Positions 16,030-27,539 of a stretch of 64,000 bases of DNA are shown piece after piece (the stretch's first letter is position 1; each line of letters opens with the position of its first letter). The stretch lies in NCBI GenBank assembly GCA_040754335.1, contig JBFMCV010000004.1:124001-188000 (forward strand). The letters run 5' to 3'. A program made the position numbers and the translations under genes. The stretch comes from Thermodesulfobacteriota bacterium (GTDB lineage Bacteria > Desulfobacterota_D > UBA1144 > Nemesobacterales > UBA2774). The notes beneath the pieces are model-generated. The model searched no databases, was not told the DNA's origin, and worked only from the letters and a program-made list of their open reading frames with translations.

Positions 16030-16124
16030 TCAAGGTCCTTTTTCATTTTCAGTTAATTTTATTCGAATCCTTGACAATCTCAAGAAAATTAAGCGAAAAT
16101 AGTAAAAAACCGGAATTATGGGTC

Positions 16125-16523
16125 ATGAATAAAAATATAGGCCTATACTCTATATTGCTGCTGGTTTTGTTTGCCGTGCCTTTAGTTTGCGCCCAGGAAG
16201 TCCGTCAGTACGGAAACGCTTCCTGGTACGCCAGTTCTTTCCACGGCAGGAAGACCGCAAGCGGCGAATGTTATGACAAGGACGAATTTACCGGCGCCCA
16301 CAGGGAGCTCCCCTTCGGGACGCTGGTGAGAGTCAGGAACTTAAATAACGGGAAAGAGGTAATAGTGAGGGTGAATGACAGAGGGCCGTTTATAAAGAGT
16401 CGTATAATCGACCTCTCGCGGGCTGCGGCTATTACGCTCGGGATCCTTAACATCGGCACGGCGAGGGTCAGCCTCGAAGTGATCTCGCTGCCGGTGAGCG
16501 CCGACCCGGGCTCCGCGTCGTAG
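16125..16523 (+). CDS. rlpA: RlpA-like double-psi beta-barrel protein
   Basis: A 132-residue secreted protein: a signal peptide (residues 1-23, cleavage likely after VCA) followed by one RlpA double-psi beta-barrel domain with GNASWYASSFHGRKTASGE and the conserved VNDRGPF. RlpA proteins are lytic transglycosylases or peptidoglycan-binding proteins of the septum. It lacks a SPOR domain, unlike its neighbour. The frame is open back to 16071, but that codon is part of a TTGACA word that looks like a -35 box, and the signal peptide begins properly at 16125. Confidence 0.85.
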   Translation: MNKNIGLYSILLLVLFAVPLVCAQEVRQYGNASWYASSFHGRKTASGECYDKDEFTGAHRELPFGTLVRVRNLNNGKEVIVRVNDRGPFIKSRIIDLSRAAAITLGILNIGTARVSLEVISLPVSADPGSAS

Positions 16524-16570
16524 GCGGGGTTCTTCCCTGAGCCCGACCCCTGTCGTCAATTGTCGAGAGC

Positions 16571-17245
16571 ATGAATAATAGATTACTTCTATTATTGTTG
16601 ATCCTCCCCATCGTTTTTTCATGCGCAAAAAAAAGTGTAGAGTCGACCCGCACGCCGCGGGAAGAAGCTCCATCGGGCGGTTATTTCGGTGAGGGCTCGA
16701 CGCAGACGGGCGTCGCCTCGTGGTACGGGATAGAAGAGCACAATAACCACGCGGCTAATGGCGAGCGTTTCAGCAAGTACGCGTACACGGCAGCCCATAA
16801 GAGCCTACCTATGGGTACGGTCGTCAGGGTTACGAACATGGAGAACGGCAGGGACGTTATAGTGAAGATAAACGACAGGGGCCCCTTCGTAGGGGGCCGC
16901 ATAATAGACCTCTCCTATACGGCGGCGCAGTCGATAGGAATGGTCGAGGAAGGCACGGTACAGGTCAAGGTCGAGGTTATATCGACACCATCCACGAGAG
17001 GGGGGAGCTATTTTCAGCCCCTCTACACGGTGCAGGTGGCGTCGTTCGCGGACAAGGGCAATGCGCTTTCCCTCAAGCGCTCGCTCGACGGCGACTATGA
17101 CGACGTAAGGATAGAGTCGATCGAGGTGAGCGGCGATAGTTACTGGAGGGTGAGGGTCGGGCGGTTCGAAGATAAGCAGGACGCCGACGAGACCGCTTCC
17201 AGGCTAAGGACCGACGGGCATTACGGTAGAGTAATAATGGAATAA
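16571..17245 (+). CDS. rlpA: RlpA lipoprotein with SPOR domain
   Basis: A 224-residue lipoprotein: signal peptide with lipobox VFSC (lipidated Cys18), RlpA double-psi beta-barrel (about residues 45-140, VASWYGIEEHNNHAANGE and INDRGPF), and a C-terminal SPOR domain (YTVQVASFADKGNA to the end) that binds glycan strands stripped of stem peptides at division sites. This is the canonical RlpA layout. It lies 47 bases after the shorter paralogue, so the pair probably arose by duplication. Confidence 0.9.
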   Translation: MNNRLLLLLLILPIVFSCAKKSVESTRTPREEAPSGGYFGEGSTQTGVASWYGIEEHNNHAANGERFSKYAYTAAHKSLPMGTVVRVTNMENGRDVIVKINDRGPFVGGRIIDLSYTAAQSIGMVEEGTVQVKVEVISTPSTRGGSYFQPLYTVQVASFADKGNALSLKRSLDGDYDDVRIESIEVSGDSYWRVRVGRFEDKQDADETASRLRTDGHYGRVIME

Positions 17246-17360: not shown

Positions 17361-18230
17361 ATGAACGAATTCGTAAAATCACACGGCCTCGGTAACGACT
17401 ATTTCGTCCTCGACGCCTCACGGATCTCTTTCGGGCTCACCCCAGCGGTTATAAGGCTCCTCTGCGACAGGAACTACGGGATAGGGTCTGACGGCATACT
17501 TCTCCTCGTCCCGTCGGCCCGGGCCGACTTCGGGTTGAGGATACTCAACCCGGACGGCAGCGAAGCGGAGAAGAGCGGGAACGGGCTCAGGATATTCGCC
17601 AAGTATCTTTACGAGCACGGCCACACCGAAAGGAAGGAATTCAGGATCGACACGCCCGGCGGAGTGGTCACGGCCGAGCTCGAGGTAAGCGGCGGGAGGG
17701 TCCCGTTCGTCACCGTGGAGATGGGCACCGCGACTTTCGACAGCGGACTTATCCCCGTAAAGGGGGACGAGAGAGAGGTAGTGAACGAGGAGATGAGGAT
17801 AGAGGGCGAGGTGCTCAGGTTCACTGCAGTCTCCGTCGGGAACCCTCACTGCGTCGTATTCGCGGAGAACCTCGATGAAGGATACACGAAGCTCGTGGGG
17901 CCGTTGATCGAGACCGCGGAGCTGTTCCCCAGCCGCACGAACGTCCAGTTCGCGAAGGTCGTCTCGAGGGACAGGGTCGAGATAATGATATGGGAGCGGG
18001 GGGCGGGCTGGACTCTCGCCTCAGGGAGCAGCTCGTGCGCAGTCGCCGCGGCGTGCGTGAAGAACGGCCTTACGGACAGGACAGTGACGGTATCCATGCC
18101 GGGCGGCGAGCTCGATATAGAAATAAGGGAAGATTGGTCTATAAAAATGAAGGGAGCGGTCGAAGAGGTCGCTTACGGCACGCTGAGCGACGATTTGATC
18201 GAAAGGATAAAATCCCTGGGAGCGGAATGA
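17361..18230 (+). CDS. dapF: Diaminopimelate epimerase homologue lacking both catalytic cysteines
   Basis: A 289-residue protein of the DapF/PhzF fold. Family motifs are intact: HGLGNDYFVLD (8-18), GSDGILLL (42-49), NPDGSEAE (63-70), GNPHCVVF (160-167) and WERGAGWTLA (211-220). In DapF the two-base mechanism uses a Cys in CGNG and another in CGTGA. Here the first reads KSGNG (Ser72, codon AGC) and the second ASGSSS (Ser221, codon TCA), so both acid/base thiols are replaced by serine. Length and all other motifs are normal, so this is not a decayed gene. It may be a modified epimerase or have another activity. GGAG lies 11 bases before the chosen ATG; the longer frame from 17310 adds unconserved residues. 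Confidence 0.85.
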   Translation: MNEFVKSHGLGNDYFVLDASRISFGLTPAVIRLLCDRNYGIGSDGILLLVPSARADFGLRILNPDGSEAEKSGNGLRIFAKYLYEHGHTERKEFRIDTPGGVVTAELEVSGGRVPFVTVEMGTATFDSGLIPVKGDEREVVNEEMRIEGEVLRFTAVSVGNPHCVVFAENLDEGYTKLVGPLIETAELFPSRTNVQFAKVVSRDRVEIMIWERGAGWTLASGSSSCAVAAACVKNGLTDRTVTVSMPGGELDIEIREDWSIKMKGAVEEVAYGTLSDDLIERIKSLGAE

Positions 18231-18299: not shown

Positions 18300-19550
18300 A
18301 TGGGAAAGCTGATACTGACCGCCGAAACGGTGGTGCCCGTTTCATCAAAACCTCTCAGAAACGCTTCCGTATTTATATCCGGCGGCAAGATCAGGGATGT
18401 CGGTAAATCGGGAGCCCTCAGGAAAAAATACAAGGGCGCTCAGGAGATGGACCTCGGGAAGGGGATATTGCTGCCGGGCTTCGTCAATGCCCATACGCAT
18501 CTCGAGCTCGGATGGATATTCGGGAGGCTCCGCAGCTTCAGCGGCTTCACCGGCTGGCTCGGGCAGATCATAAAGGAAAAAAGGGCGGGCGTCGCAAGCG
18601 GCGGGATCGTCAGGTCCGCGGTGGAGGGGATAAGGGCGAACATCCTGTCGGGAGTTACGACAGTAGGGGAGATATCCTCGTACGGCGGCCTGGACAAGCC
18701 GCTCCTCAAAGGCTCGGGGCTGAGGACGGTTCTCTTCAGAGAAGTGCTCGACAGCAATGAAGACAAGACGGATTTCTCCTCTCTCGAAAAAGGGACGCTC
18801 TTCGAGGAAAGACTCTTCCTTCATTCCCCTTATTCGTGCAGTCCGGGAGTGCTGAAAAAAGCCCTCAGGTATTACAGGAAGAACGGCGTACCGCTCGGCA
18901 TCCACCTCGCCGAGAGTGCCGATGAGGTGAGGTTCGTGAGGGGCGAGGAAAACAGCATAGAAAAGAAGATATTCCCGCTTATAAAAAAGACTCCGTTTAA
19001 AAGGCCGTCGGCGGAAACGCCTGTCTCGTATCTCGGGAAAGCAGGGCTCCTCCACGGCGTGAAGATTACGCTCGTACACATGGTGCAGGTGAGCGGCGAA
19101 GAAGCGCGTCAGCTCCGCGATATGGACGCGACCGTAGTACTTTGCCCGAGGAGCAATTTTTTTCTTCAGGTCGGCGCCCCGCCGGTGAAGGAATACGCGG
19201 AGTTTAACAGGATCGGCATAGGGACAGACGGACTCTCCAGCAACTACAACCTCGACTTTTTTGAAGAGATGAGGTTCCTTCACCTGCTCATGTCCGCATC
19301 TCAGGGCCGGCGCGCCGCCTTTGTCACGGTATATGCCGCGACGCTCGGGGGGGCAAAAGCCCTTTATATCGAGGACAAGACCGGCAGCATCGAGACCGGT
19401 AAGGAGGCTGATCTGATATTCCTCGGCAACAGGGCCGGAACGGGCGACCCTTACCTCTCGGTCATATCGTCGTCCGCGCGGGACGTCGGGATGGTCATGG
19501 TCCGCGGCGAGATCATCCATACCGGCGATGACAAGCTTTCGAAAAGATAG
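18300..19550 (+). CDS. Amidohydrolase-family deaminase (possible aminodeoxyfutalosine deaminase)
   Basis: A 416-residue TIM-barrel metal hydrolase of the TRZ/ATZ/cytosine-deaminase group. Metal ligands are visible: His65 and His67 in NAHTHLE, His202 in IHLAES, His260 in LVHMVQV and Asp310 in GTDGLSSN. The two flanking beta-strand segments (residues 1-55 and about 375-416) form the usual small composite domain. Because mqnA and mqnD are encoded 7 kb away, aminodeoxyfutalosine deaminase (MqnX), which belongs to this family, is a reasonable guess; guanine, cytosine or chlorohydrolase-like substrates are alternatives. The next gene begins 12 bases downstream. Confidence 0.82.
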   Translation: MGKLILTAETVVPVSSKPLRNASVFISGGKIRDVGKSGALRKKYKGAQEMDLGKGILLPGFVNAHTHLELGWIFGRLRSFSGFTGWLGQIIKEKRAGVASGGIVRSAVEGIRANILSGVTTVGEISSYGGLDKPLLKGSGLRTVLFREVLDSNEDKTDFSSLEKGTLFEERLFLHSPYSCSPGVLKKALRYYRKNGVPLGIHLAESADEVRFVRGEENSIEKKIFPLIKKTPFKRPSAETPVSYLGKAGLLHGVKITLVHMVQVSGEEARQLRDMDATVVLCPRSNFFLQVGAPPVKEYAEFNRIGIGTDGLSSNYNLDFFEEMRFLHLLMSASQGRRAAFVTVYAATLGGAKALYIEDKTGSIETGKEADLIFLGNRAGTGDPYLSVISSSARDVGMVMVRGEIIHTGDDKLSKR

Positions 19551-19562
19551 AAGGAGCCCGGC

Positions 19563-20600
19563 ATGATCGACAAAATCTTCGTTTACGGGACGCTTCTCCG
19601 CGGCGAGGAGAGAGGCTGCTACATGCGGGGCTGCAGGCTCTCCCGTATACTCGAAGTCCCGGGCAGGCTTTACGATACCGGACGGGGTTACCCGGCCGCA
19701 TTATTCGGCGATGAATCGGACTCATCGGTGTCGGGCGAGCTCTATATCATGGAGGACCCGCATTCCAAGATCGAAGAGCTCGACAGGGTCGAGGGTACCG
19801 AGTCTGGTCTCTTTAAGAGATCGAACATACAGCGCTCCGGTATCGAATTCTTCTGCTACGAAGCGGGGCCTCAGCTGAATGGTTCTGCGAACGAGTCAAG
19901 CAGGATTCCGGGCGGGAGCTGGAGGACGCATTCCTCGCTCGCGTTCACTGATCCTGTTGATTTCGCCATCCGGTTCGAGACGCACATAAAAAACAGCTAC
20001 AAGGAGTATCCCGGCGGGGACACGGACGGAATGCATTATATCAGGGGAAGCGTCCCAGTCTTCGTCACGGCTCCCCACGCGACCGCGCACGTGCGCCTGG
20101 GAAAGCTGAAGAGGCAGGAATTCTATACCGGCGCGCTCGCCGTGCTCCTTCATTCGGTGACGGGGTGCCATGCCCTCTACACTGACAGGCTCTCTCCGGT
20201 CGATCCAAATTACTCGGACGAATCCCCGTTTAAAGGAAAGCTCGCTCAGATAGCGGAAAGGAGCGGAATAGAATTCCTGATCGATCTCCACGGGACGGGT
20301 TCGGAGAGGTCCGCGGACGTTTTTCCGGGCGTCGGCGGAAATCACGAGTTCCTGAACGGTAAGCTTGGCACACTTAACGAACTTGCCTCCGCGGCTGAAT
20401 CAAAGGGCATCATTTTAGGCTCTCCGGACGTCTTCCCCGCGTCGAGACAGTTGACGGTAACGAGGTATTCTGCGGTTAAGCTCGGAGTGCCGTCGATGCA
20501 GCTCGAAATAAACCAGCGCCTGAGACAGCCCGAGAGCGCGCCTTCTGATTTCGTGAGGCTCGTCGGTTTTCTCAGGGATTTTATCGGACGCCTTTCCTGA
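19563..20600 (+). CDS. Gamma-glutamylcyclotransferase fused to N-formylglutamate-amidohydrolase-like domain
   Basis: A 345-residue two-domain protein. Residues 1-100 are a gamma-glutamylcyclotransferase (AIG2-like) domain with VYGTLLRG (7-14) and Glu78 in LDRVEG as the candidate general base. Residues about 160-345 look like the zinc-carboxypeptidase-fold N-formylglutamate amidohydrolase/succinylglutamate desuccinylase group: VTAPHATAH (168-176), IDLHGTG (240-246) and LEIN (314-317) would supply His/Asp/His/Glu metal and catalytic residues. AAGGAG precedes the ATG. It is probably cotranscribed with the amidohydrolase. Its 3' end overlaps the convergent dehydrogenase gene by 20 bases. The second-domain assignment is by motif only. 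Confidence 0.75.
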   Translation: MIDKIFVYGTLLRGEERGCYMRGCRLSRILEVPGRLYDTGRGYPAALFGDESDSSVSGELYIMEDPHSKIEELDRVEGTESGLFKRSNIQRSGIEFFCYEAGPQLNGSANESSRIPGGSWRTHSSLAFTDPVDFAIRFETHIKNSYKEYPGGDTDGMHYIRGSVPVFVTAPHATAHVRLGKLKRQEFYTGALAVLLHSVTGCHALYTDRLSPVDPNYSDESPFKGKLAQIAERSGIEFLIDLHGTGSERSADVFPGVGGNHEFLNGKLGTLNELASAAESKGIILGSPDVFPASRQLTVTRYSAVKLGVPSMQLEINQRLRQPESAPSDFVRLVGFLRDFIGRLS

Positions 20601-23478
20601 TCCTGCCCGCCAGCACCTCGGCGATATGTTTGACCTTCCTTCCGGTGAAGTGCTCTATCTGATGCCTGCACGATACGCCCGAGACCGCGATGACAGTCTC
20701 CGGGGCGGCATTTCTAACGGCAGGGAACAGGCGGTCTTCGCCTATTGTCTTCGATATATCGTAATGCTCGCTCTCGTATCCGAAGCTCCCGGCCATCCCG
20801 CAGCACCCGGCCCCGCTCTCTTGGGCCCTGCATCCGGACGCGGCGAGCATTCCCAACGGAGCCGCCAGCCCGGCGAGCGACCTCTCGTGACAGTGCCCGT
20901 GATAGAGGATATTCTGCGCGTCCCCGCTCCATTCAATATTCAGACCCCTCTCCCTCTGCACGCGGTTAAGGAACTCGCTCAGCATGAACGAATTCTCTGC
21001 CAGCGACCGTGCGTCATCATTTCCGGGCAGGAGGTCCATGTACTCGTCCCTGAAAGTGAGTATGCAGCTCGGCTCGGTTCCGACGACGGGGATACCTTCC
21101 CTGGTGAACGGCGCGAGGGTGGAGACGTTCTTCCGCGCCCTTTCCCTCGCTTCTTCTATCATCCCCTTGCTCAGCATAGGCCTACCGCAGCATACCCTTT
21201 CGCGTACTAGAATGACTTCGAAGCCGGCGGCTTCCAGAAGCTCGACAGACGACTTCCCAACCTCGGGGTGATAATACGTGACCCACGTGTCGTGGAAGAA
21301 GACGATTTTCCTCCCCGGCGCTCCGGCGCGTTTTGTCCTGCCGTAGAACCATTCCGTAAAGCTTTTTGAGGATAACCTGGGCAGTGTGCGCGCGCGATGA
21401 ATACCGAGGCGTGATAGCAGCAGTCCCGTCACCGGATTTCCCAGGAGCGCATTCGAGAGCGCGGGTGCTAGCGAGGCTATGCGGCTCGCCCCGTGGATGT
21501 CCGAGAAGAAACGGTCCCTCAAGCTCATGCCGTGCCTCTCGTGGTAATGTGAAAGGAACTCGGTCTTCATCTTGGCAGCGTCCACCTTCGAGGGACATTC
21601 TGTCTTGCATGCCTTGCACGATATGCAGAGATCGAAGACGCCGTACATGTCCTCCCCGGCGAGCGAATCCCTCCCGAGCGCGCCCGAGAGCACCGCCCTC
21701 AGCGCGTTCGCGCGCGCCCTCGTCGTATCCCTCTCGTCCCGCGTCGCCATGTATGAGGGGCACATAATCCCCTCGCCGAGCTTCCTGCAGACTCCCTGGC
21801 CGTTGCACATCCCGACCGCCTCCGGAAAGCCGCGGTCCCGGGACCAGTCGAGCTTAGTCCGGATTTCATAGGGTTCTTTCCTGTCCCCGTACCTCAGGTT
21901 CTCAAGAGGGCTTCCCGGGTCGACGACCTTGCCCGGATTGAACATGCCCGCGGGATCGAACGCGGCCTTGAGCTCCCTCATTGCGCCGTATAACGCGGGG
22001 CCGAAGAGCCTCTCGTTCAAGTAGCTCCTCTGTATGCCGTCCCCGTGCTCGCCGCTCATCACGCCGCCGTATCTCAGCGCAAGCTCGAATGCGCCGTCCA
22101 TGAGTTCCTTCATCGTGAGCACGCCGCTTTCGGTTTTCAGGTTCACGAGGGGCCTTATGTGAAGACAGCCCGCGCTCGCGTGCCCGTAAAACCCCGCTGT
22201 CGTCCCGAGGCTCTTGATCAATTCAGAAACGTCGCTAACATATTCGGGGAGCCTCTCGACCGGCACCGACACGTCCTCTATGCACGGAATCGGCTTGTGC
22301 TCGTCCCTCCTGCTCATCATTATCCCTAACCCCGCGCGCCTGACTCCCCATACATTCGCCTGCTCCTCCCTGCCTAGGGCGAAATTAATGCCGCACCCCG
22401 TGCCCTTTTCCCTGAGCGAAGCGGCAAGACCTTCCGCTTTCTTTTTAACTTCGTCTTCGCTCGTCCCGTAAAACTCGACGGCGAGAAGCGCCTCGGGCTC
22501 GCCTTCGACGAATGAGAGCATCGAGCTATACCCCGCGTGTGCCCTCGTCAGGCTTATGAGCATCGAGTCTATAAGCTCGATCGCCGAAGGGCCGTGTTCG
22601 AGAATCCCGGGGACCGTCTCCATTGCCGCAATTATGCTCGCGAACTGGAGTATGACGAGCCCTGTGAAAGCGGGCCCGGGCACCAGCCTGAGTGTGAATT
22701 CGGTCGCCACCCCGAGAGTGCCTTCCGAGCCCGCGAGGAGCCTCGCAGGGTTGAAGGGGGATTCCAGGAGATAATTGAGACTGTATCCAGATGCCCTTCT
22801 CCAGTGTCTGGGGAAATCGCGCTTTATAGCATCTCTGTATTTCTCACGGAGGGCGGCGAGATTATTGAAGAGCGCCCCCGCGGGCCCGTTCTCCTTCGCG
22901 CGCGCCCTGAGCCCGTCTTCGCTCAGCGTGCCGAGCTCGACGGAACTCCCGCCGCTGATAATTCTCGCGCCTTCGACATTGTCCCCCGCCATGCCGTAGA
23001 GTATAGAATGCGCCCCTGTGGCGTTATTCCCGACGGCTCCCCCCGCGGTCGCGATCCTCACTGTGGACGGATCGGGTCCGAACATGAGACCTGAGGGTCT
23101 GAGCCTCCTGTTCAGCTGCTCCAAATAAATACCCGTCTGGACGCGGGCGGTTCCGGCTTCGGAGTCTATCTCGATGACGCCGTTCATGTATTTCGAGAAA
23201 TCTATTACGAGCGCGTGGCCCACGGCCTGCCCTGCGAGGCTCGTGCCTCCGCCCCTCGGAAGTATAGCGACGCCTAGTTTGCCGGCCGTTTCTATTGCTG
23301 CCGATACGTCCTCCTCCGTCCGGGGTATCACTACTCCCACGGGCTCGATCTCGTAGTTGCTCGCGTCCGTGCTGTAGAGCGTCCTGCTTAATTTATCAAA
23401 ACGCACTTCGCCCTTTATTCTTCGTTTAAGCAAGACTTCGAGCTCTTCACGTATGATGTACTCGGCGGCGTCATGCAT
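20581..23478 (-). CDS. FAD-linked oxidase fused to Fe-S (GlpC/CCG-type) domain, YdiJ-like
   Basis: A 965-residue 2-hydroxyacid dehydrogenase-type flavoprotein. The N-terminal half is an FAD-binding PCMH domain (LPRGGGTSLAGQ, GGAVGNNATGAHS) with the FAD-oxidase C-terminal domain (YGHASAGCLHIRP, SGEHGDGI). The C-terminal half has two 4Fe-4S sites (CNGQGVC...CPSY and CISCKACKTECP) and two CCG motifs (VCCGRPML, GCCGMAGSFG) as in heterodisulfide-reductase B and GlpC. This one-chain layout is that of E. coli YdiJ (D-2-hydroxyglutarate dehydrogenase) and related D-lactate/glycolate dehydrogenases that feed electrons to quinone. The substrate is uncertain. Confidence 0.87.
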   Translation of the reverse strand: MHDAAEYIIREELEVLLKRRIKGEVRFDKLSRTLYSTDASNYEIEPVGVVIPRTEEDVSAAIETAGKLGVAILPRGGGTSLAGQAVGHALVIDFSKYMNGVIEIDSEAGTARVQTGIYLEQLNRRLRPSGLMFGPDPSTVRIATAGGAVGNNATGAHSILYGMAGDNVEGARIISGGSSVELGTLSEDGLRARAKENGPAGALFNNLAALREKYRDAIKRDFPRHWRRASGYSLNYLLESPFNPARLLAGSEGTLGVATEFTLRLVPGPAFTGLVILQFASIIAAMETVPGILEHGPSAIELIDSMLISLTRAHAGYSSMLSFVEGEPEALLAVEFYGTSEDEVKKKAEGLAASLREKGTGCGINFALGREEQANVWGVRRAGLGIMMSRRDEHKPIPCIEDVSVPVERLPEYVSDVSELIKSLGTTAGFYGHASAGCLHIRPLVNLKTESGVLTMKELMDGAFELALRYGGVMSGEHGDGIQRSYLNERLFGPALYGAMRELKAAFDPAGMFNPGKVVDPGSPLENLRYGDRKEPYEIRTKLDWSRDRGFPEAVGMCNGQGVCRKLGEGIMCPSYMATRDERDTTRARANALRAVLSGALGRDSLAGEDMYGVFDLCISCKACKTECPSKVDAAKMKTEFLSHYHERHGMSLRDRFFSDIHGASRIASLAPALSNALLGNPVTGLLLSRLGIHRARTLPRLSSKSFTEWFYGRTKRAGAPGRKIVFFHDTWVTYYHPEVGKSSVELLEAAGFEVILVRERVCCGRPMLSKGMIEEARERARKNVSTLAPFTREGIPVVGTEPSCILTFRDEYMDLLPGNDDARSLAENSFMLSEFLNRVQRERGLNIEWSGDAQNILYHGHCHERSLAGLAAPLGMLAASGCRAQESGAGCCGMAGSFGYESEHYDISKTIGEDRLFPAVRNAAPETVIAVSGVSCRHQIEHFTGRKVKHIAEVLAGRIRKGVR

Positions 23479-23656: not shown

Positions 23657-24310
23657 ATGCGGTTTGGAATCGTTCCCGTAAAAGACCTATCGAAGGCGAA
23701 GGAAAGACTGTCGTCGCTGCTGCCTCAGGACGCAAGGACGGACCTCGCCTATGCTATGCTCGAGGACGTGCTCACGGCGCTTAAGGGATCGAAGCTCCTC
23801 GACAGGATTTTTATCGTCACCATGGACAGGAAGGCGATACGGATCGCAGGGGATATGGGGATAGAGGTCATAGAGGAAACGGAGCAGAAAGGCGAGAGCG
23901 ACTCCGTCGACCGGGCGTCACGTATATGCAAGGAAATGGGAGCCGGCTCCGTGCTCGTTATTCCGGGGGACGCCCCGCTTATAAAATCAGAGGACATAGA
24001 TTTCATTGCGGAAAAGGAATCGGACCCTCCCTGCGTAATACTCGTCCCTGCCCGGGACAGGATGGGCACGAACGCCATACTCCGGAACCCGCCCGACGCG
24101 ATCCCATCACGTTTCGGTCACGACAGCTTCAGGAAGCACACGGAGGAGGCCCGGAAGAGGGGCATACGGATCGAATATTACGAGAACGCAAGGGTAGGGC
24201 TCGACGTTGATCACCCGGACGATCTGAAGCTGTTCGCTTCCGAAAAGAGCGACACGAAAACCTACGAGCTTCTCTTGAGTAAAAAAATCCTCGGCAAGGT
24301 CAGGGGATGA
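23657..24310 (+). CDS. cofC: 2-phospho-L-lactate guanylyltransferase (F420 biosynthesis)
   Basis: A 217-residue nucleotidyltransferase of the CofC family, which activates 2-phospholactate (or phosphoenolpyruvate in some bacteria) with GTP at the start of the F420 side-chain pathway. Family features are the N-terminal IVPVKDLSKAKERL, the metal-binding VIPGDAPL, MGTNAILRNPP and the C-terminal GLDVDHPDDL. Other cof/fbi genes are not in the window. An LLM-type oxidoreductase at 44775 is a possible F420 user. The stop lies 25 bases from the end of a convergent aldehyde dehydrogenase gene. Confidence 0.88.
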   Translation: MRFGIVPVKDLSKAKERLSSLLPQDARTDLAYAMLEDVLTALKGSKLLDRIFIVTMDRKAIRIAGDMGIEVIEETEQKGESDSVDRASRICKEMGAGSVLVIPGDAPLIKSEDIDFIAEKESDPPCVILVPARDRMGTNAILRNPPDAIPSRFGHDSFRKHTEEARKRGIRIEYYENARVGLDVDHPDDLKLFASEKSDTKTYELLLSKKILGKVRG

Positions 24311-24335
24311 TCGACCGCGGCTTTATACGGTCTCA

Positions 24336-25769
24336 TTAGTAATTCAGGTTGACTACGAGCAGCTTTAATTCGGTCATCTCCTCGATCGCGTAACGCACTC
24401 CCTCACGTCCCGTGCCCGAGTCCTTGACCCCCCCGTAAGGCATGTTCTCGACCCTGAAGCTCGGGTAGTCATTCACCACGACCCCTCCGACGTCGAGCGC
24501 GCCGTATGCCTTGAACGCTTTCTTCATGTCCTTCGTGAAGACCCCCGCCTGTAGCCCGTAACGCGAGTCGTTCACGGCTTTAAGCGCCTCGTCGAAGTCC
24601 CTATACCTCTCCACGTGCACCACAGGCCCGAACACCTCGCTCTTGCTGACGTCGCATCCGGGGGGCACGCCGGTCAGAACCGTGGGCTCGATGAGAGAGC
24701 CGTCCCTGTTCCCGCCCGTGAGCAGCTTCGCCCCTTTGCCTATCGCGTCATCTATCCATTCCATTATCCTGTCAGCCGATCCGGTATCGATAACGGGGCC
24801 CACGTCCGTGTCTTCGAGCATGGGGTCGCCGAGCCTGAGCTTTTTCGTCTCATCTATGAATTTGCTCATGAATTTATCGAACGTCTTCTCGTGCACGTAC
24901 ATCCTCTGGACGGATATGCAGCTCTGCCCGGCCTGGTAAAACGCTCCCCATGCGTTCCTGCCCGCGGCGAAATCGAGGTCGGGCGGGTCTTCGTCAATGA
25001 TAGTCGCCGCGTTCCCGCCCAGCTCGAGTGTGACCTTCTTCTTCGGGTATTTCTTCTTGAGCTCCCACCCTATGGCGTCGCTCCCCGTGAACGAGACCTT
25101 CTTCACCCTCTCGTCGTCTATTACTGCCTCTATCTCCGCGCCCGGCACGGGCAGTATATTGAGAAGCCCTTCTGGTAGCTCTGCTTCCAGGACGATCTCT
25201 CCGAGCATGAGCGCCGAAAGCGGGGTCTGGGATGCGGGCTTCAGTATCATCGCGTTCCCCGAGGCTATGGACGGCGCGACCTTGTGGGCGACGAGGTTGA
25301 GTGGAAAGTTGAAAGGGGATATCCCGACGACTGCGCCTAAAGGAAACCTTCTCGCGATCCCGAACATTTTTTCGTTCCCGGGCGCGATGTCTATGGGGAC
25401 GAGCTCGCCTTCGTTGAACCTGTTCGCCTCCTCTGCGGCTACGGAGAACGTTACTACGGCGCGGCCCACCTCGACCCTCGCGGTCTTGAGAGGTTTCCCT
25501 CCTTCAAGTACTAGGATCCTCGCGAATTCCTCCTCTCTTGCGGCGATCCCGTCCGCGATCTTCCTCAGTATGCGGCTCCGCTCATGGCTCGGGCTCTCTC
25601 TCCATTTCTCGTACGCGCTCTCCGCGAATCCTATGGACTCAAGAGCCTTAGCACGCTCGGGAACGTTTATCACTCCCGCGACCTCACCGTTGTAGGGGCT
25701 TTTTATTTCCTTTTTCTTCCCGCTCTTTACCCATTTCCCGTTAAGGAGGTAACCGAATTCCTTAGACAT
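24336..25769 (-). CDS. NAD(P)-dependent aldehyde dehydrogenase
   Basis: A 477-residue ALDH-superfamily enzyme of normal length. The Rossmann signature is SPFNFPLNL, the catalytic Glu lies in TLELGGNAA and the nucleophilic Cys in QAGQSCISVQ. Its branch looks like succinate-semialdehyde/lactaldehyde/phosphonoacetaldehyde dehydrogenases. In methanogens a lactaldehyde dehydrogenase of this superfamily (CofA) supplies lactate for F420; the convergent neighbour cofC makes that worth noting, but the genes cannot share a transcript. AGGAGAGGTG supports the ATG, and TATAAT on the minus strand at 25801-25806 may be its -10 box. Confidence 0.87.
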   Translation of the reverse strand: MSKEFGYLLNGKWVKSGKKKEIKSPYNGEVAGVINVPERAKALESIGFAESAYEKWRESPSHERSRILRKIADGIAAREEEFARILVLEGGKPLKTARVEVGRAVVTFSVAAEEANRFNEGELVPIDIAPGNEKMFGIARRFPLGAVVGISPFNFPLNLVAHKVAPSIASGNAMILKPASQTPLSALMLGEIVLEAELPEGLLNILPVPGAEIEAVIDDERVKKVSFTGSDAIGWELKKKYPKKKVTLELGGNAATIIDEDPPDLDFAAGRNAWGAFYQAGQSCISVQRMYVHEKTFDKFMSKFIDETKKLRLGDPMLEDTDVGPVIDTGSADRIMEWIDDAIGKGAKLLTGGNRDGSLIEPTVLTGVPPGCDVSKSEVFGPVVHVERYRDFDEALKAVNDSRYGLQAGVFTKDMKKAFKAYGALDVGGVVVNDYPSFRVENMPYGGVKDSGTGREGVRYAIEEMTELKLLVVNLNY

Positions 25770-25886: not shown

Positions 25887-26720
25887 CTAGATTTCGAGTA
25901 TATCGAGCTTCGGCTCTTCCTTGATTATCCCTTTATCGTACGCCTTATTGAAAAGAAATTCGAGCGCGGCCTTTCCTTTCCCGCCGAGGTCCCGGGTGTA
26001 CTCGTTGACGTACATGAGCACGAACTTCTCGCCAACGTCCTCGCCTATTCCCCTTCCGTATTTCATCGCGTATCCGAGGGCTTCTTTCTTGTGGGCGAGC
26101 CCGTACTCTATGCTTTCCCTGTGCACCCTGAGGACCTCTCTCTCGAGCTCCTCTCCCATGTCCCGCCTTACGACGTTGAGACCGAGAGGGAGAGGAAGCG
26201 TGGTGTCTACTTGCCACAGCTCGCCCAGATCGAGCACGAGCTCGAGGCCGTAGTCCCTGTATGTAAGCTGTCCCTCGTGGATGATGAGCCCTGTCTCTAT
26301 ATCGCCCTTTGCCACCGCGGGCATGATCTCGTCGAATGGCATTTCGACCGGGACAAATCCGTCCGCATAGATGCTCAGGAGAAGGAACGCGGTCGTGAGC
26401 TTACCGGGAACCCCGATCTCCTTGCCGTGGAGGTCGTCAACCGGCACGCTCGATACCACGATAGGGCCGTACCCTTCCCCCATGCTCGCGCCGCAGGACA
26501 TGATCCTGTAATCGTCCTGTACTTTCAGGTATCCGTGCGCCGAGATCGCGGTCGTTTCGAGCTCTTTATTGAGCGCGCGCTTGTTAAGCGATTGAATGTC
26601 CTCTATCACGTGCTCGAAATCGATTTTGTCCGATGTCACTTTCCCCGAGGCAATGCCGTAGAACATGAAAGCGTCGTCGGGGTCGGGGCTGTGTCCGAGT
26701 CTCATCTTTATCTTGCTCAA
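25887..26720 (-). CDS. mqnD: 1,4-dihydroxy-6-naphthoate synthase (futalosine pathway)
   Basis: MqnD converts cyclic dehypoxanthinyl futalosine into 1,4-dihydroxy-6-naphthoate on the alternative menaquinone route. The protein has the periplasmic-binding-like fold with HSPDPDDAFMFYG near the N-terminus, TTAISAHGY and the substrate-pocket GLIIHEGQ. I place the start at a TTG (26720, 277 residues) because GGAGG lies eight bases before it. The frame also opens with an ATG at 26741, directly after the mqnA stop, but that start has no ribosome site. It is coupled to mqnA. Confidence 0.9.
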   Translation of the reverse strand: MSKIKMRLGHSPDPDDAFMFYGIASGKVTSDKIDFEHVIEDIQSLNKRALNKELETTAISAHGYLKVQDDYRIMSCGASMGEGYGPIVVSSVPVDDLHGKEIGVPGKLTTAFLLLSIYADGFVPVEMPFDEIMPAVAKGDIETGLIIHEGQLTYRDYGLELVLDLGELWQVDTTLPLPLGLNVVRRDMGEELEREVLRVHRESIEYGLAHKKEALGYAMKYGRGIGEDVGEKFVLMYVNEYTRDLGGKGKAALEFLFNKAYDKGIIKEEPKLDILEI

Positions 26721-26741
26721 TCTCTCTACCTCCGATTTCAT

Positions 26742-27539
26742 CTACTCTGAATGGATTTTTATCCGGGAAATTTTTTCAGCCCCGCCCAGGCGGGAGAGGT
26801 ATTCGCTGTATCGGCGTATACCCTCAAGCTCCTTTTCTCCGAGGTCGTACTTTATCCTCTCGGTCAGGTATCGATAGCATACTGATTCGTCGAGTCCCGT
26901 CCTCGCCGCTTCATTTTTTGCAATTTCTCTCACAATGCCGATCCCGTAGTCCTTGGATTCGTGAAGCGCCCCCAGGTTCCTCCCCAGCTCAACCCCCTCG
27001 TTCACGGCGAAGACGGCGTACACGAACGGGAGACCCGTTTCTTCAGTCCATATCTCTCCGAGGTCGTAGACATTGAAACCCTCGGGAGGGTGACAGGTGG
27101 TTTCGAGGCCCGTGTCGCCGATTATCATTCCCGCATCGACGTCATTCAGGAAACCCTCCTCCGCGGCTCTGGGCAGGTAGACGGGCGACAGGTTGTGGAA
27201 CGTCTCCAGTATAATCTTCAGAAGCGCGGTCGAGCTCTGGGACCTCCTGTCGACGGCGACGCTTTTAATATCCGTGATCGCGCCCCTGGATAAGAGCACC
27301 ACGCTGTCCACCTTCCCGTACGACGAGATCGAGATTCCCGGTACGGCGGAGTATGTGTTCTTCCTGAGGAATTCTGCGACGGGGATGAGACCCAGGTCTA
27401 TCTCCTTTCTCGAAAGCAGGAGCGACAGCTCGGAAGGGGGCGTGAGCGTTATTTGGAAGTCGTGCTCTACGCTGCCGTTCTCTAAAGCGAACGTGAGCGG
27501 TTTCGCATTCATGAAACATACAGAGCCCAGTTTAATCAC
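26742..27539 (-). CDS. mqnA: Chorismate dehydratase (futalosine pathway)
   Basis: MqnA dehydrates chorismate to 3-enolpyruvylbenzoate, the first step of futalosine-type menaquinone synthesis. The 265-residue protein has the family N-terminus KLGSVCFMNAKPLTFAL, the SRKEIDLGLIPVAEF loop and a bilobed binding-protein fold. The start is GTG (27537-27539) with AAAGGTG just upstream. It is the first gene of the mqnA-mqnD pair; mqnE, mqnC and mqnB are not in the window. Confidence 0.92.
   Translation of the reverse strand: MIKLGSVCFMNAKPLTFALENGSVEHDFQITLTPPSELSLLLSRKEIDLGLIPVAEFLRKNTYSAVPGISISSYGKVDSVVLLSRGAITDIKSVAVDRRSQSSTALLKIILETFHNLSPVYLPRAAEEGFLNDVDAGMIIGDTGLETTCHPPEGFNVYDLGEIWTEETGLPFVYAVFAVNEGVELGRNLGALHESKDYGIGIVREIAKNEAARTGLDESVCYRYLTERIKYDLGEKELEGIRRYSEYLSRLGGAEKISRIKIHSE

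What the first reader, a model, noticed from the sequence alone, without database searches (positions are those of the whole stretch)
17361..18230. DapF homologue with both catalytic cysteines replaced by serine
Seen: KSGNG (Ser72) and ASGSSS (Ser221) where DapF has Cys in CGNG and CGTGA; every other family motif is intact. Known: DapF uses a Cys thiolate/thiol pair, and in the wider proline-racemase-like fold exchange of one Cys is linked to changed chemistry (for example trans-3-hydroxyproline dehydratase with Thr). Inference: the enzyme may not be a normal DAP epimerase. Such Ser/Ser sequences may already exist in databases under the dapF name, but their activity is not known to me.
Basis: partly seen in the sequence, partly recalled or inferred. 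Interest (0 to 1): 0.55.

Follow-up and report, generated by a model that had tools for sequence, protein, structure and literature searches.

The report
Cysteine-free DapF used by whole phyla
A cell-wall and lysine enzyme (DapF) that is known to work with two cysteines has serines in both places in this bacterium and in large groups of mostly uncultured bacteria where it appears to be the only copy, so it probably does the same job with a chemistry that has not been tested.

Summary
In detail: the DapF at 17361-18230 has Ser72 and Ser221 where the family has its catalytic cysteines. It is no one-off. Ser/Ser was read in 54 of 54 Dadabacteria genomes with a hit (57 searched), 67 of 83 in the phylum of a Rokubacteria locus, 39 of 40 in the phylum of locus L012, 4 of 392 Planctomycetota and 2 of 395 Bacteroidota genomes. 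These proteins form one clade (support 100/100); other substitutions, notably Lys71 and Ser224, are fixed with the serines. In Dadabacteria it is the only DapF hit, beside DapL, LysA and a DAP-type MurE, without DAP dehydrogenase; in other phyla its gene sits by dapL, lysA or ddl. The DAP-binding residues are intact. So it is most probably the working LL-/meso-DAP epimerase; another substrate or reaction is unlikely. The oddity is the catalysis: Cys-to-Ser mutants of a relative keep under 0.1% activity. I infer serines acting as the acid/base pair, helped by Lys71, Ser224 and helix dipoles; untested. Precedents are a Ser/Cys hydroxyproline epimerase and a Ser/Thr dehydratase. The papers searched describe no Ser/Ser DapF.

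The parts
17361..18230 (+). Ser/Ser diaminopimelate epimerase (dapF), 289 aa
   Evidence: TIGR00652 242.7 bits, PF01678 190 bits; only TIGR00652 match at E <= 0.001 in the genome; AlphaFold2 model pLDDT 92.2 matches DapF structures at Z 27-37
17571..17573 (+). Lys71, clade-specific residue before the first catalytic position (Met in most canonical DapF read)
   Evidence: Lys in 165 of 165 clade rows, Met 81 and Leu 2 of 83 canonical rows
17574..17576 (+). Ser72 in place of the first catalytic Cys (Cys75 in Anabaena DapF)
   Evidence: in distinct frames of the clade AGY codons 109, TCN codons 55
18021..18023 (+). Ser221 in place of the second catalytic Cys (Cys224 in Anabaena DapF)
   Evidence: all 160 codons read are TCN
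18030..18032 (+). Ser224, in place of the Gly whose backbone NH lies by the second thiolate (Gly227 Anabaena)
   Evidence: Ser in 165 of 165 clade rows, Gly in 84 of 84 canonical rows; role of Gly227 from PMC12039745 passages
17547..17549 (+). Asn63, DAP-binding residue (Asn66 Anabaena)
   Evidence: Asn in 164 of 165 clade rows, Tyr in one; role from PMC12039745 passages
17841..17849 (+). Asn161-Pro162-His163: DAP-binding Asn (Asn164 Anabaena) and a conserved His
   Evidence: Asn161 165 of 165, His163 164 of 165 clade rows, one X
17940..17942 (+). Asn194, DAP-binding residue (Asn197 Anabaena)
   Evidence: 165 of 165 clade rows
17994..17999 (+). Glu212-Arg213, bind the distal end of DAP (Glu215-Arg216 Anabaena)
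   Evidence: each 165 of 165 clade rows; role from PMC12039745 passages

Best explanation
The gene encodes the working LL-/meso-diaminopimelate epimerase of this Dadabacterium, a member of one DapF clade in which the thiolate/thiol pair has been replaced by two serines. LL-DAP made by DapL is bound as in ordinary DapF (distal end held by Asn63, Asn161, Asn194, Glu212 and Arg213), and its alpha-proton is moved between Ser72 on one face and Ser221 on the other. I infer that the serines act as the acid/base pair: each sits at the start of a helix, Ser72 with the invariant Lys71 beside it and Ser221 with the invariant Ser224 three residues on, which would lower the cost of an alkoxide or relay the proton. 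Shown by calls: sequence, predicted fold, clade, sole hit, pathway genes and gene neighbours. Inferred: the epimerase activity. Inferred and least certain: that the serines themselves carry the proton, and what Lys71 and Ser224 do.
For: Sole copy: 54 of 57 Dadabacteria genomes have exactly one TIGR00652 match, 54 of 54 read as Ser/Ser, among them all 14 genomes of 0.8-1.1 Mb in family f8. Need for it: DapL over cut-off in 43 of 57, own genome included; LysA in 55 of 57; MurE in 50 of 57, DNPR in 20 of 20 loci read; DAP dehydrogenase in 0 of 57. Alternation: in the phylum of G065, of 83 genomes with a match 67 carry Ser/Ser and 16 only a low-scoring one, 15 of these read as Cys/Cys and the last a fragment with the second Cys; one genome (G076) has both kinds, one (G159) two Ser/Ser copies. 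Context: dapL and a lysA-like gene flank it in L013; dapL follows it in L254; a ddl match lies upstream on the same strand in 18 of 20 loci of G067's phylum. Binding residues kept. One clade, 100/100 without 13 signature columns. Precedent: an active 4-hydroxyproline epimerase with a Ser/Cys pair (PMC4113996, passages).
Against: No activity is measured. Cys-to-Ser mutants of the DapF-like racemase PddB keep less than 0.1% activity, and its authors cite the same kind of faint remnant for M. tuberculosis DapF (PMC8225329, passages). An unrelated DAP epimerase in these genomes cannot be excluded. In the window the gene lies by menaquinone-type genes, not lysine genes. The lysA-like gene in L013 scores just under its cut-off (291.3 against 297.9). 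DapL is over cut-off in only 11 of 22 Ser/Ser genomes given from G065's phylum and 1 of 15 from G067's (12 more at 557-588 bits, cut-off 593.25). Three of 57 Dadabacteria genomes have no DapF match, one of them 92% complete. No atomic distances were available to test the Lys71 idea.
Confidence: 0.75

Rival explanations
1. It is a re-purposed paralogue: the serines mark a different reaction, such as elimination/dehydration, or racemisation of another amino acid.
For: In the wider fold a Ser/Thr pair goes with dehydration (PMC4113996, passages); a protein predicted as DapF turned out to be a histidine racemase (PMC11602996, abstract and passages); genome G069 carries both a Cys/Cys and a Ser/Ser copy, and so does G076.
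Against: It is the only match in the family in nearly all Ser/Ser genomes searched, the DAP distal-end contacts are kept, and gene neighbours in other phyla are dapL, lysA-like and ddl genes.
Confidence: 0.1
2. It is still a DAP epimerase, but a cysteine elsewhere (Cys35 or Cys164) supplies the thiol.
For: Cys35 in 165 of 165 and Cys164 in 163 of 165 clade rows.
Against: Both are also frequent in canonical rows (53 and 26 of 83), so neither is new to the clade; Cys164 stands three residues after Asn161, whose Anabaena equivalent contacts the distal end of DAP, not the reacting carbon.
Confidence: 0.08
3. It is an inactive or barely active leftover kept for a structural or regulatory role, while another enzyme makes meso-DAP.
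For: Loss of both known catalytic groups; E. coli DapF also forms a complex with RppH (titles of 6d13 and 6vck).
Against: Coordinated, fixed substitutions across several phyla; present in 14 of 14 small f8 genomes; no dehydrogenase bypass over cut-off in 57 genomes.
Confidence: 0.06

Closest known systems
Diaminopimelate epimerase DapF (TIGR00652; solved enzymes of Haemophilus, Anabaena, Bacillus anthracis, E. coli and others)
   Same: Predicted fold (Z 27-37), family score, DAP-binding residues, pathway position and, in some phyla, gene neighbours.
   Different: Both catalytic cysteines are serine; Lys instead of Met before the first; Ser instead of Gly three residues after the second; a separate clade.
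4-hydroxyproline 2-epimerase with a Ser/Cys pair (Agrobacterium vitis; Ser93 with Cys255 in the text, Cys236 in the legend, which also differ on the accession)
   Same: A serine is one of the two acid/base residues in the same wider fold, with epimerase activity (PMC4113996, passages).
   Different: Only one of the pair is serine; another family and substrate.
[quoted passage not shown]
   Same: No catalytic cysteine; serine as the catalytic residue (PMC4113996, passages).
   Different: Dehydration, not epimerisation; the Thr is described as in a non-catalytic orientation.
Aspartate/glutamate racemases with Cys/Thr (EcL-DER, MMP0739)
   Same: A hydroxyl residue replaces one catalytic Cys (PMC8142540, passages).
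   Different: One Cys remains; EcL-DER is one-directional and MMP0739 is predicted to be; another superfamily (recalled).

Membership tests
DapF (TIGR00652) | Family profile score over curated cut-off | tested here: met
   242.7 bits against 114.65
DapF (TIGR00652) | Two-domain DapF fold | tested here: met
   Predicted model pLDDT 92.2; Z 37.1, 1.6 A over 271 residues to P. aeruginosa DapF
DapF (TIGR00652) | Residues that bind the distal amino acid of DAP (Asn66, Asn164, Asn197, Glu215, Arg216 in Anabaena) | tested here: met
   Equivalents Asn63, Asn161, Asn194, Glu212, Arg213 kept in 164-165 of 165 clade rows; roles from PMC12039745 passages; equivalence by equal spacing to the catalytic residues
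DapF (TIGR00652) | Catalytic Cys/Cys thiolate-thiol pair | tested here: not met
   Ser72 and Ser221 in the window; Cys in both places in 82 canonical rows
DapF (TIGR00652) | Genome context that needs an LL- to meso-DAP step (DapL, LysA, meso-DAP-type MurE, no Ddh, no second DapF) | tested here: met
   that DNPR marks meso-DAP ligases is recalled
DapF (TIGR00652) | Interconversion of LL- and meso-DAP | not testable with these tools
   needs a biochemical assay
Proline racemase family (PF05544) | Pfam profile over gathering score | tested here: not met
   22.4 bits against 27
Bifunctional DapF/glutamate racemase (NF038284) | Curated cut-off | tested here: not met
   62.8 bits against 350

The most novel reading that the evidence does not exclude
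A cofactor-free amino-acid epimerase without catalytic cysteine: Ser72 and Ser221 do the two-sided proton transfer, with invariant Lys71 making a Ser-Lys device on one face and Ser224 assisting on the other. I know of no amino-acid racemase or epimerase with such a pair, and it would be immune to oxidation and thiol poisons at its active site.
Probability: 0.4. Interest if true: 0.78.

Novelty: new variant of a known kind. Interest (0 to 1): 0.6.

Why it matters
Cofactor-free amino-acid racemases are explained by a cysteine pair tuned to pull off a proton of pKa about 29 (PMC12039745, start of abstract), and a Cys-to-Ser change nearly kills a studied relative. A natural DapF with serine on both faces, used as the only copy by whole bacterial lineages, would show that the thiol is not essential and offers a ready comparison of how. 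It also bears on annotation (rules that demand Cys would call these proteins inactive), on inhibitors aimed at the thiol, and possibly on oxidation resistance: C. glutamicum DapF loses activity with H2O2 and can form a disulfide between its two catalytic cysteines (PMC5296763, passages).

Tried and rejected
Second DapF in the genome: searched, none at E <= 0.001 (a second first-look candidate did not reach it). Bypass by DAP dehydrogenase: none over cut-off in 57 genomes; five genomes have weak partial N-terminal matches.

One-serine intermediates: a pattern showed MSGNG in L163 and L164, which looked like Ser/Cys. That stretch is at the start of the frame; both catalytic columns are Cys. L199 looked like ASGNA by the same pattern and is Cys/Cys. 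No Ser/Cys or Cys/Ser row was found among 254 rows; one row is Gly/Cys (L024).

Menaquinone role: the pair dapF-amidohydrolase recurs in other Dadabacteria loci (judged there by eye from the first residues), but other phyla have other neighbours, and I know of no epimerisation step in the futalosine route.

Residue 217 as a marker: variable in both groups.

Plasmid search: 117 records, all under 60% identity; sequences not read. Distances for Lys71: the coordinates of the model were not in the script box. Paper searches that listed no description of a Ser/Ser DapF; the library lacks most subscription journals and I saw listings and passages, no whole paper. The H. influenzae mutant kinetics (Koo and Blanchard 1999) are recalled and were seen only as a citation.

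Counts after removal of identical rows: 254 rows, 97 rows under 75% identity in the trees; rows under 220 residues were left out of the trees.

Full report
What is there. The frame 17361-18230 (+) encodes 289 aa with Ser72 in KSGNG and Ser221 in ASGSSS. It is a clear DapF by profile (TIGR00652 242.7 bits, cut-off 114.65), by sequence to solved DapF (best 9mro, E 1.5e-59) and by predicted fold (pLDDT 92.2; Z 27-37 to DapF chains). A longer frame starts at GTG 17310, but the aligned relatives begin at or near the ATG used here.

Where it comes from. The nearest named relatives (91% identity) are Candidatus Dadabacteria records. The own genome has one DapF-family match, this one. Of 57 genomes of the phylum, 54 have one match each and three have none (92, 74 and 77% complete). 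All 54 were read as Ser/Ser: 30 in loci, 18 in loci, and six in L001-L006, whose genomes show the same places and scores.

How far it goes. With a profile of ten Ser/Ser proteins (A1) I searched four other phyla. Phylum of G065 (the genome of L010, a Rokubacteria record): 95 genomes, 83 with matches, 67 with best scores of 252-493 bits and 16 with 70-141; the 67 were all read and are Ser/Ser (G072 shows only the Ser221 half); of the 16, 15 were read as Cys/Cys and the last, a fragment, shows the second Cys. Phylum of G067 (L012; records titled HR32 and Armatimonadota): 43 genomes, 40 with matches, 39 read as Ser/Ser (G575 shows only the Ser72 half), the last a 51-residue fragment. Phylum of G069 (L015, Sedimentisphaerales): 392 genomes, 4 Ser/Ser, then a score gap from 355 to 295 bits; 26 of the lower ones read, all Cys/Cys. 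Phylum of G068 (L013, Bacteroidales): 395 genomes, 2 Ser/Ser, next score 242; 28 lower ones read, all Cys/Cys. Genomes with more than one Ser/Ser copy or with another kind besides: G069 (second copy Cys/Cys), G076 (Cys/Cys too), G159 (two Ser/Ser), G220 (three matches, only the best read).

One origin. On a tree of 97 rows under 75% identity (44 Ser/Ser, 52 Cys/Cys, one Gly/Cys) the Ser/Ser rows are one side of one branch, support 100, and 100/100 when 13 signature columns including the two serines are left out (its bootstrap had not fully settled). The root is not inferred, but in the drawn tree the branch joins inside canonical rows, so one change from Cys/Cys is the simple reading. Single Planctomycetota and Bacteroidota genomes among Cys/Cys relatives suggest later transfers, or binning errors in those assemblies (inference).

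A re-tooled site, not decay. Clade against canonical rows with a letter (rows sorted by residues 72 and 221): Lys71 165/165 against 0/83 (Met 81, Leu 2); Ile78 166/166 against 0/83; Gln196 165/165 against 0/83; Ser224 165/165 against 0/84 (Gly 84); Ile210 163/165 against 0/83; Phe126 167/167, canonical Leu 37 of 84 and loosely aligned there. Ser72 is written with AGY codons 109 times and TCN 55 times, Ser221 always with TCN (160), over distinct frames; moving between the two codon families passes through a non-serine codon unless two bases change together, so Ser72 looks held by selection (inference). In Anabaena DapF the Gly in the place of Ser224 has its backbone NH by the second sulphur, and no basic residue lies within 4 A of either sulphur (PMC12039745, passages); here a Lys stands next to Ser72 in every clade row with a letter there. 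In C. glutamicum DapF the Met before the first cysteine lies in the moving loop that carries it (PMC5296763, passages).

Why it should be the DAP epimerase. The contacts to the distal half of DAP are kept (roles). DapL, which yields LL-DAP, is over its cut-off in the own genome and in 43 of 57 Dadabacteria; LysA in 55; MurE in 50, with DNPR in 20 of 20 loci read, own genome included (that this motif marks meso-DAP ligases is recalled). DAP dehydrogenase, the known bypass, is over cut-off in none. Something should turn LL-DAP into meso-DAP, and the only DapF match is this one, also in the 14 genomes of 0.8-1.1 Mb. Outside Dadabacteria: L013 has dapL (TIGR03542 627.7 bits, cut-off 364.7) divergent from dapF, then a lysA-like gene (291.3, cut-off 297.9); L254 has dapF followed by another type of dapL (NF004937 671.1, cut-off 585); in G067's phylum the gene upstream in L259 is a D-Ala-D-Ala ligase (NF002378 339.2, cut-off 243), and 18 of 20 loci have a tblastn match to it upstream on the same strand, estimated gap 36-571 bases (locus L211 is short, L218 has none); L257 has dapB about 5 kb away (246.7, cut-off 122). 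Among Cys/Cys genomes of G065's phylum, 11 loci have a lysA match beside the canonical gene, and in 12 of 14 genomes given to DapL lies on the same contig within about 5 kb (positions), so both kinds of DapF keep similar company in different lineages.

Results that do not fit neatly. Of 56 genomes given to the DapL search, 24 passed the cut-off: 11 of 22 Ser/Ser genomes of G065's phylum, 12 of 14 Cys/Cys ones, 1 of 15 of G067's phylum (12 more at 557-588 bits), none of the last five (G068 has a DapL of the other, plant type). How the Ser/Ser genomes without DapL make DAP was not found out. In the window itself the neighbours are menaquinone-type genes.

How it may work. The reaction needs a base and an acid on opposite faces. 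Canonical enzymes use a thiolate and a thiol. Cys-to-Ser changes in PddB leave under 0.1% activity (PMC8225329, passages), so plain replacement is not enough. But an epimerase with a Ser/Cys pair and a dehydratase with Ser90/Thr256 in the proline-racemase family are active (PMC4113996, passages), so serine can serve in this fold. I infer that the clade's fixed Lys71 and Ser224 are the compensation. No distances could be measured.

Novelty. Seven paper searches listed no Ser/Ser DapF; the library is open-licence only. I file it as a new variant of a known kind: by context it works as DapF, it fails one defining feature (the Cys pair), and its activity is unmeasured.

Noticed in passing
18300-19550, 25887-27539: Menaquinone-type genes near dapF: an aminofutalosine-deaminase-like amidohydrolase directly after it (NF006269 202.1 bits, under the cut-off of 320) and two PF02621 (menaquinone biosynthesis) proteins further on; the dapF-amidohydrolase pair recurs in other Dadabacteria loci.
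   Followed up: partly
23657-25769: CofC (2-phospho-L-lactate guanylyltransferase, over cut-off) next to a gene like lactaldehyde dehydrogenase (under cut-off), which hints at coenzyme F420 synthesis.
   Followed up: no
20581-23478: 965-aa fusion of a FAD-linked (GlcD/YdiJ-like) dehydrogenase with an iron-sulphur, CCG-domain half like GlpC.
   Followed up: no
19563-20600: 345-aa protein: gamma-glutamylcyclotransferase-like N-terminal part (residues 5-121) followed by about 220 residues without a Pfam match.
   Followed up: no
16071-17245: Two RlpA-type (DPBB) genes in tandem, the second with a SPOR domain.
   Followed up: no
L161 (genome G076): A genome of the Rokubacteria locus's phylum with both a Ser/Ser DapF (L142) and a distant Cys/Cys DapF inside a 721-aa open frame.
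   Followed up: no
L024: A DapF-like frame from a Firmicutes record with Gly in place of the first catalytic Cys and Cys kept in the second.
   Followed up: no
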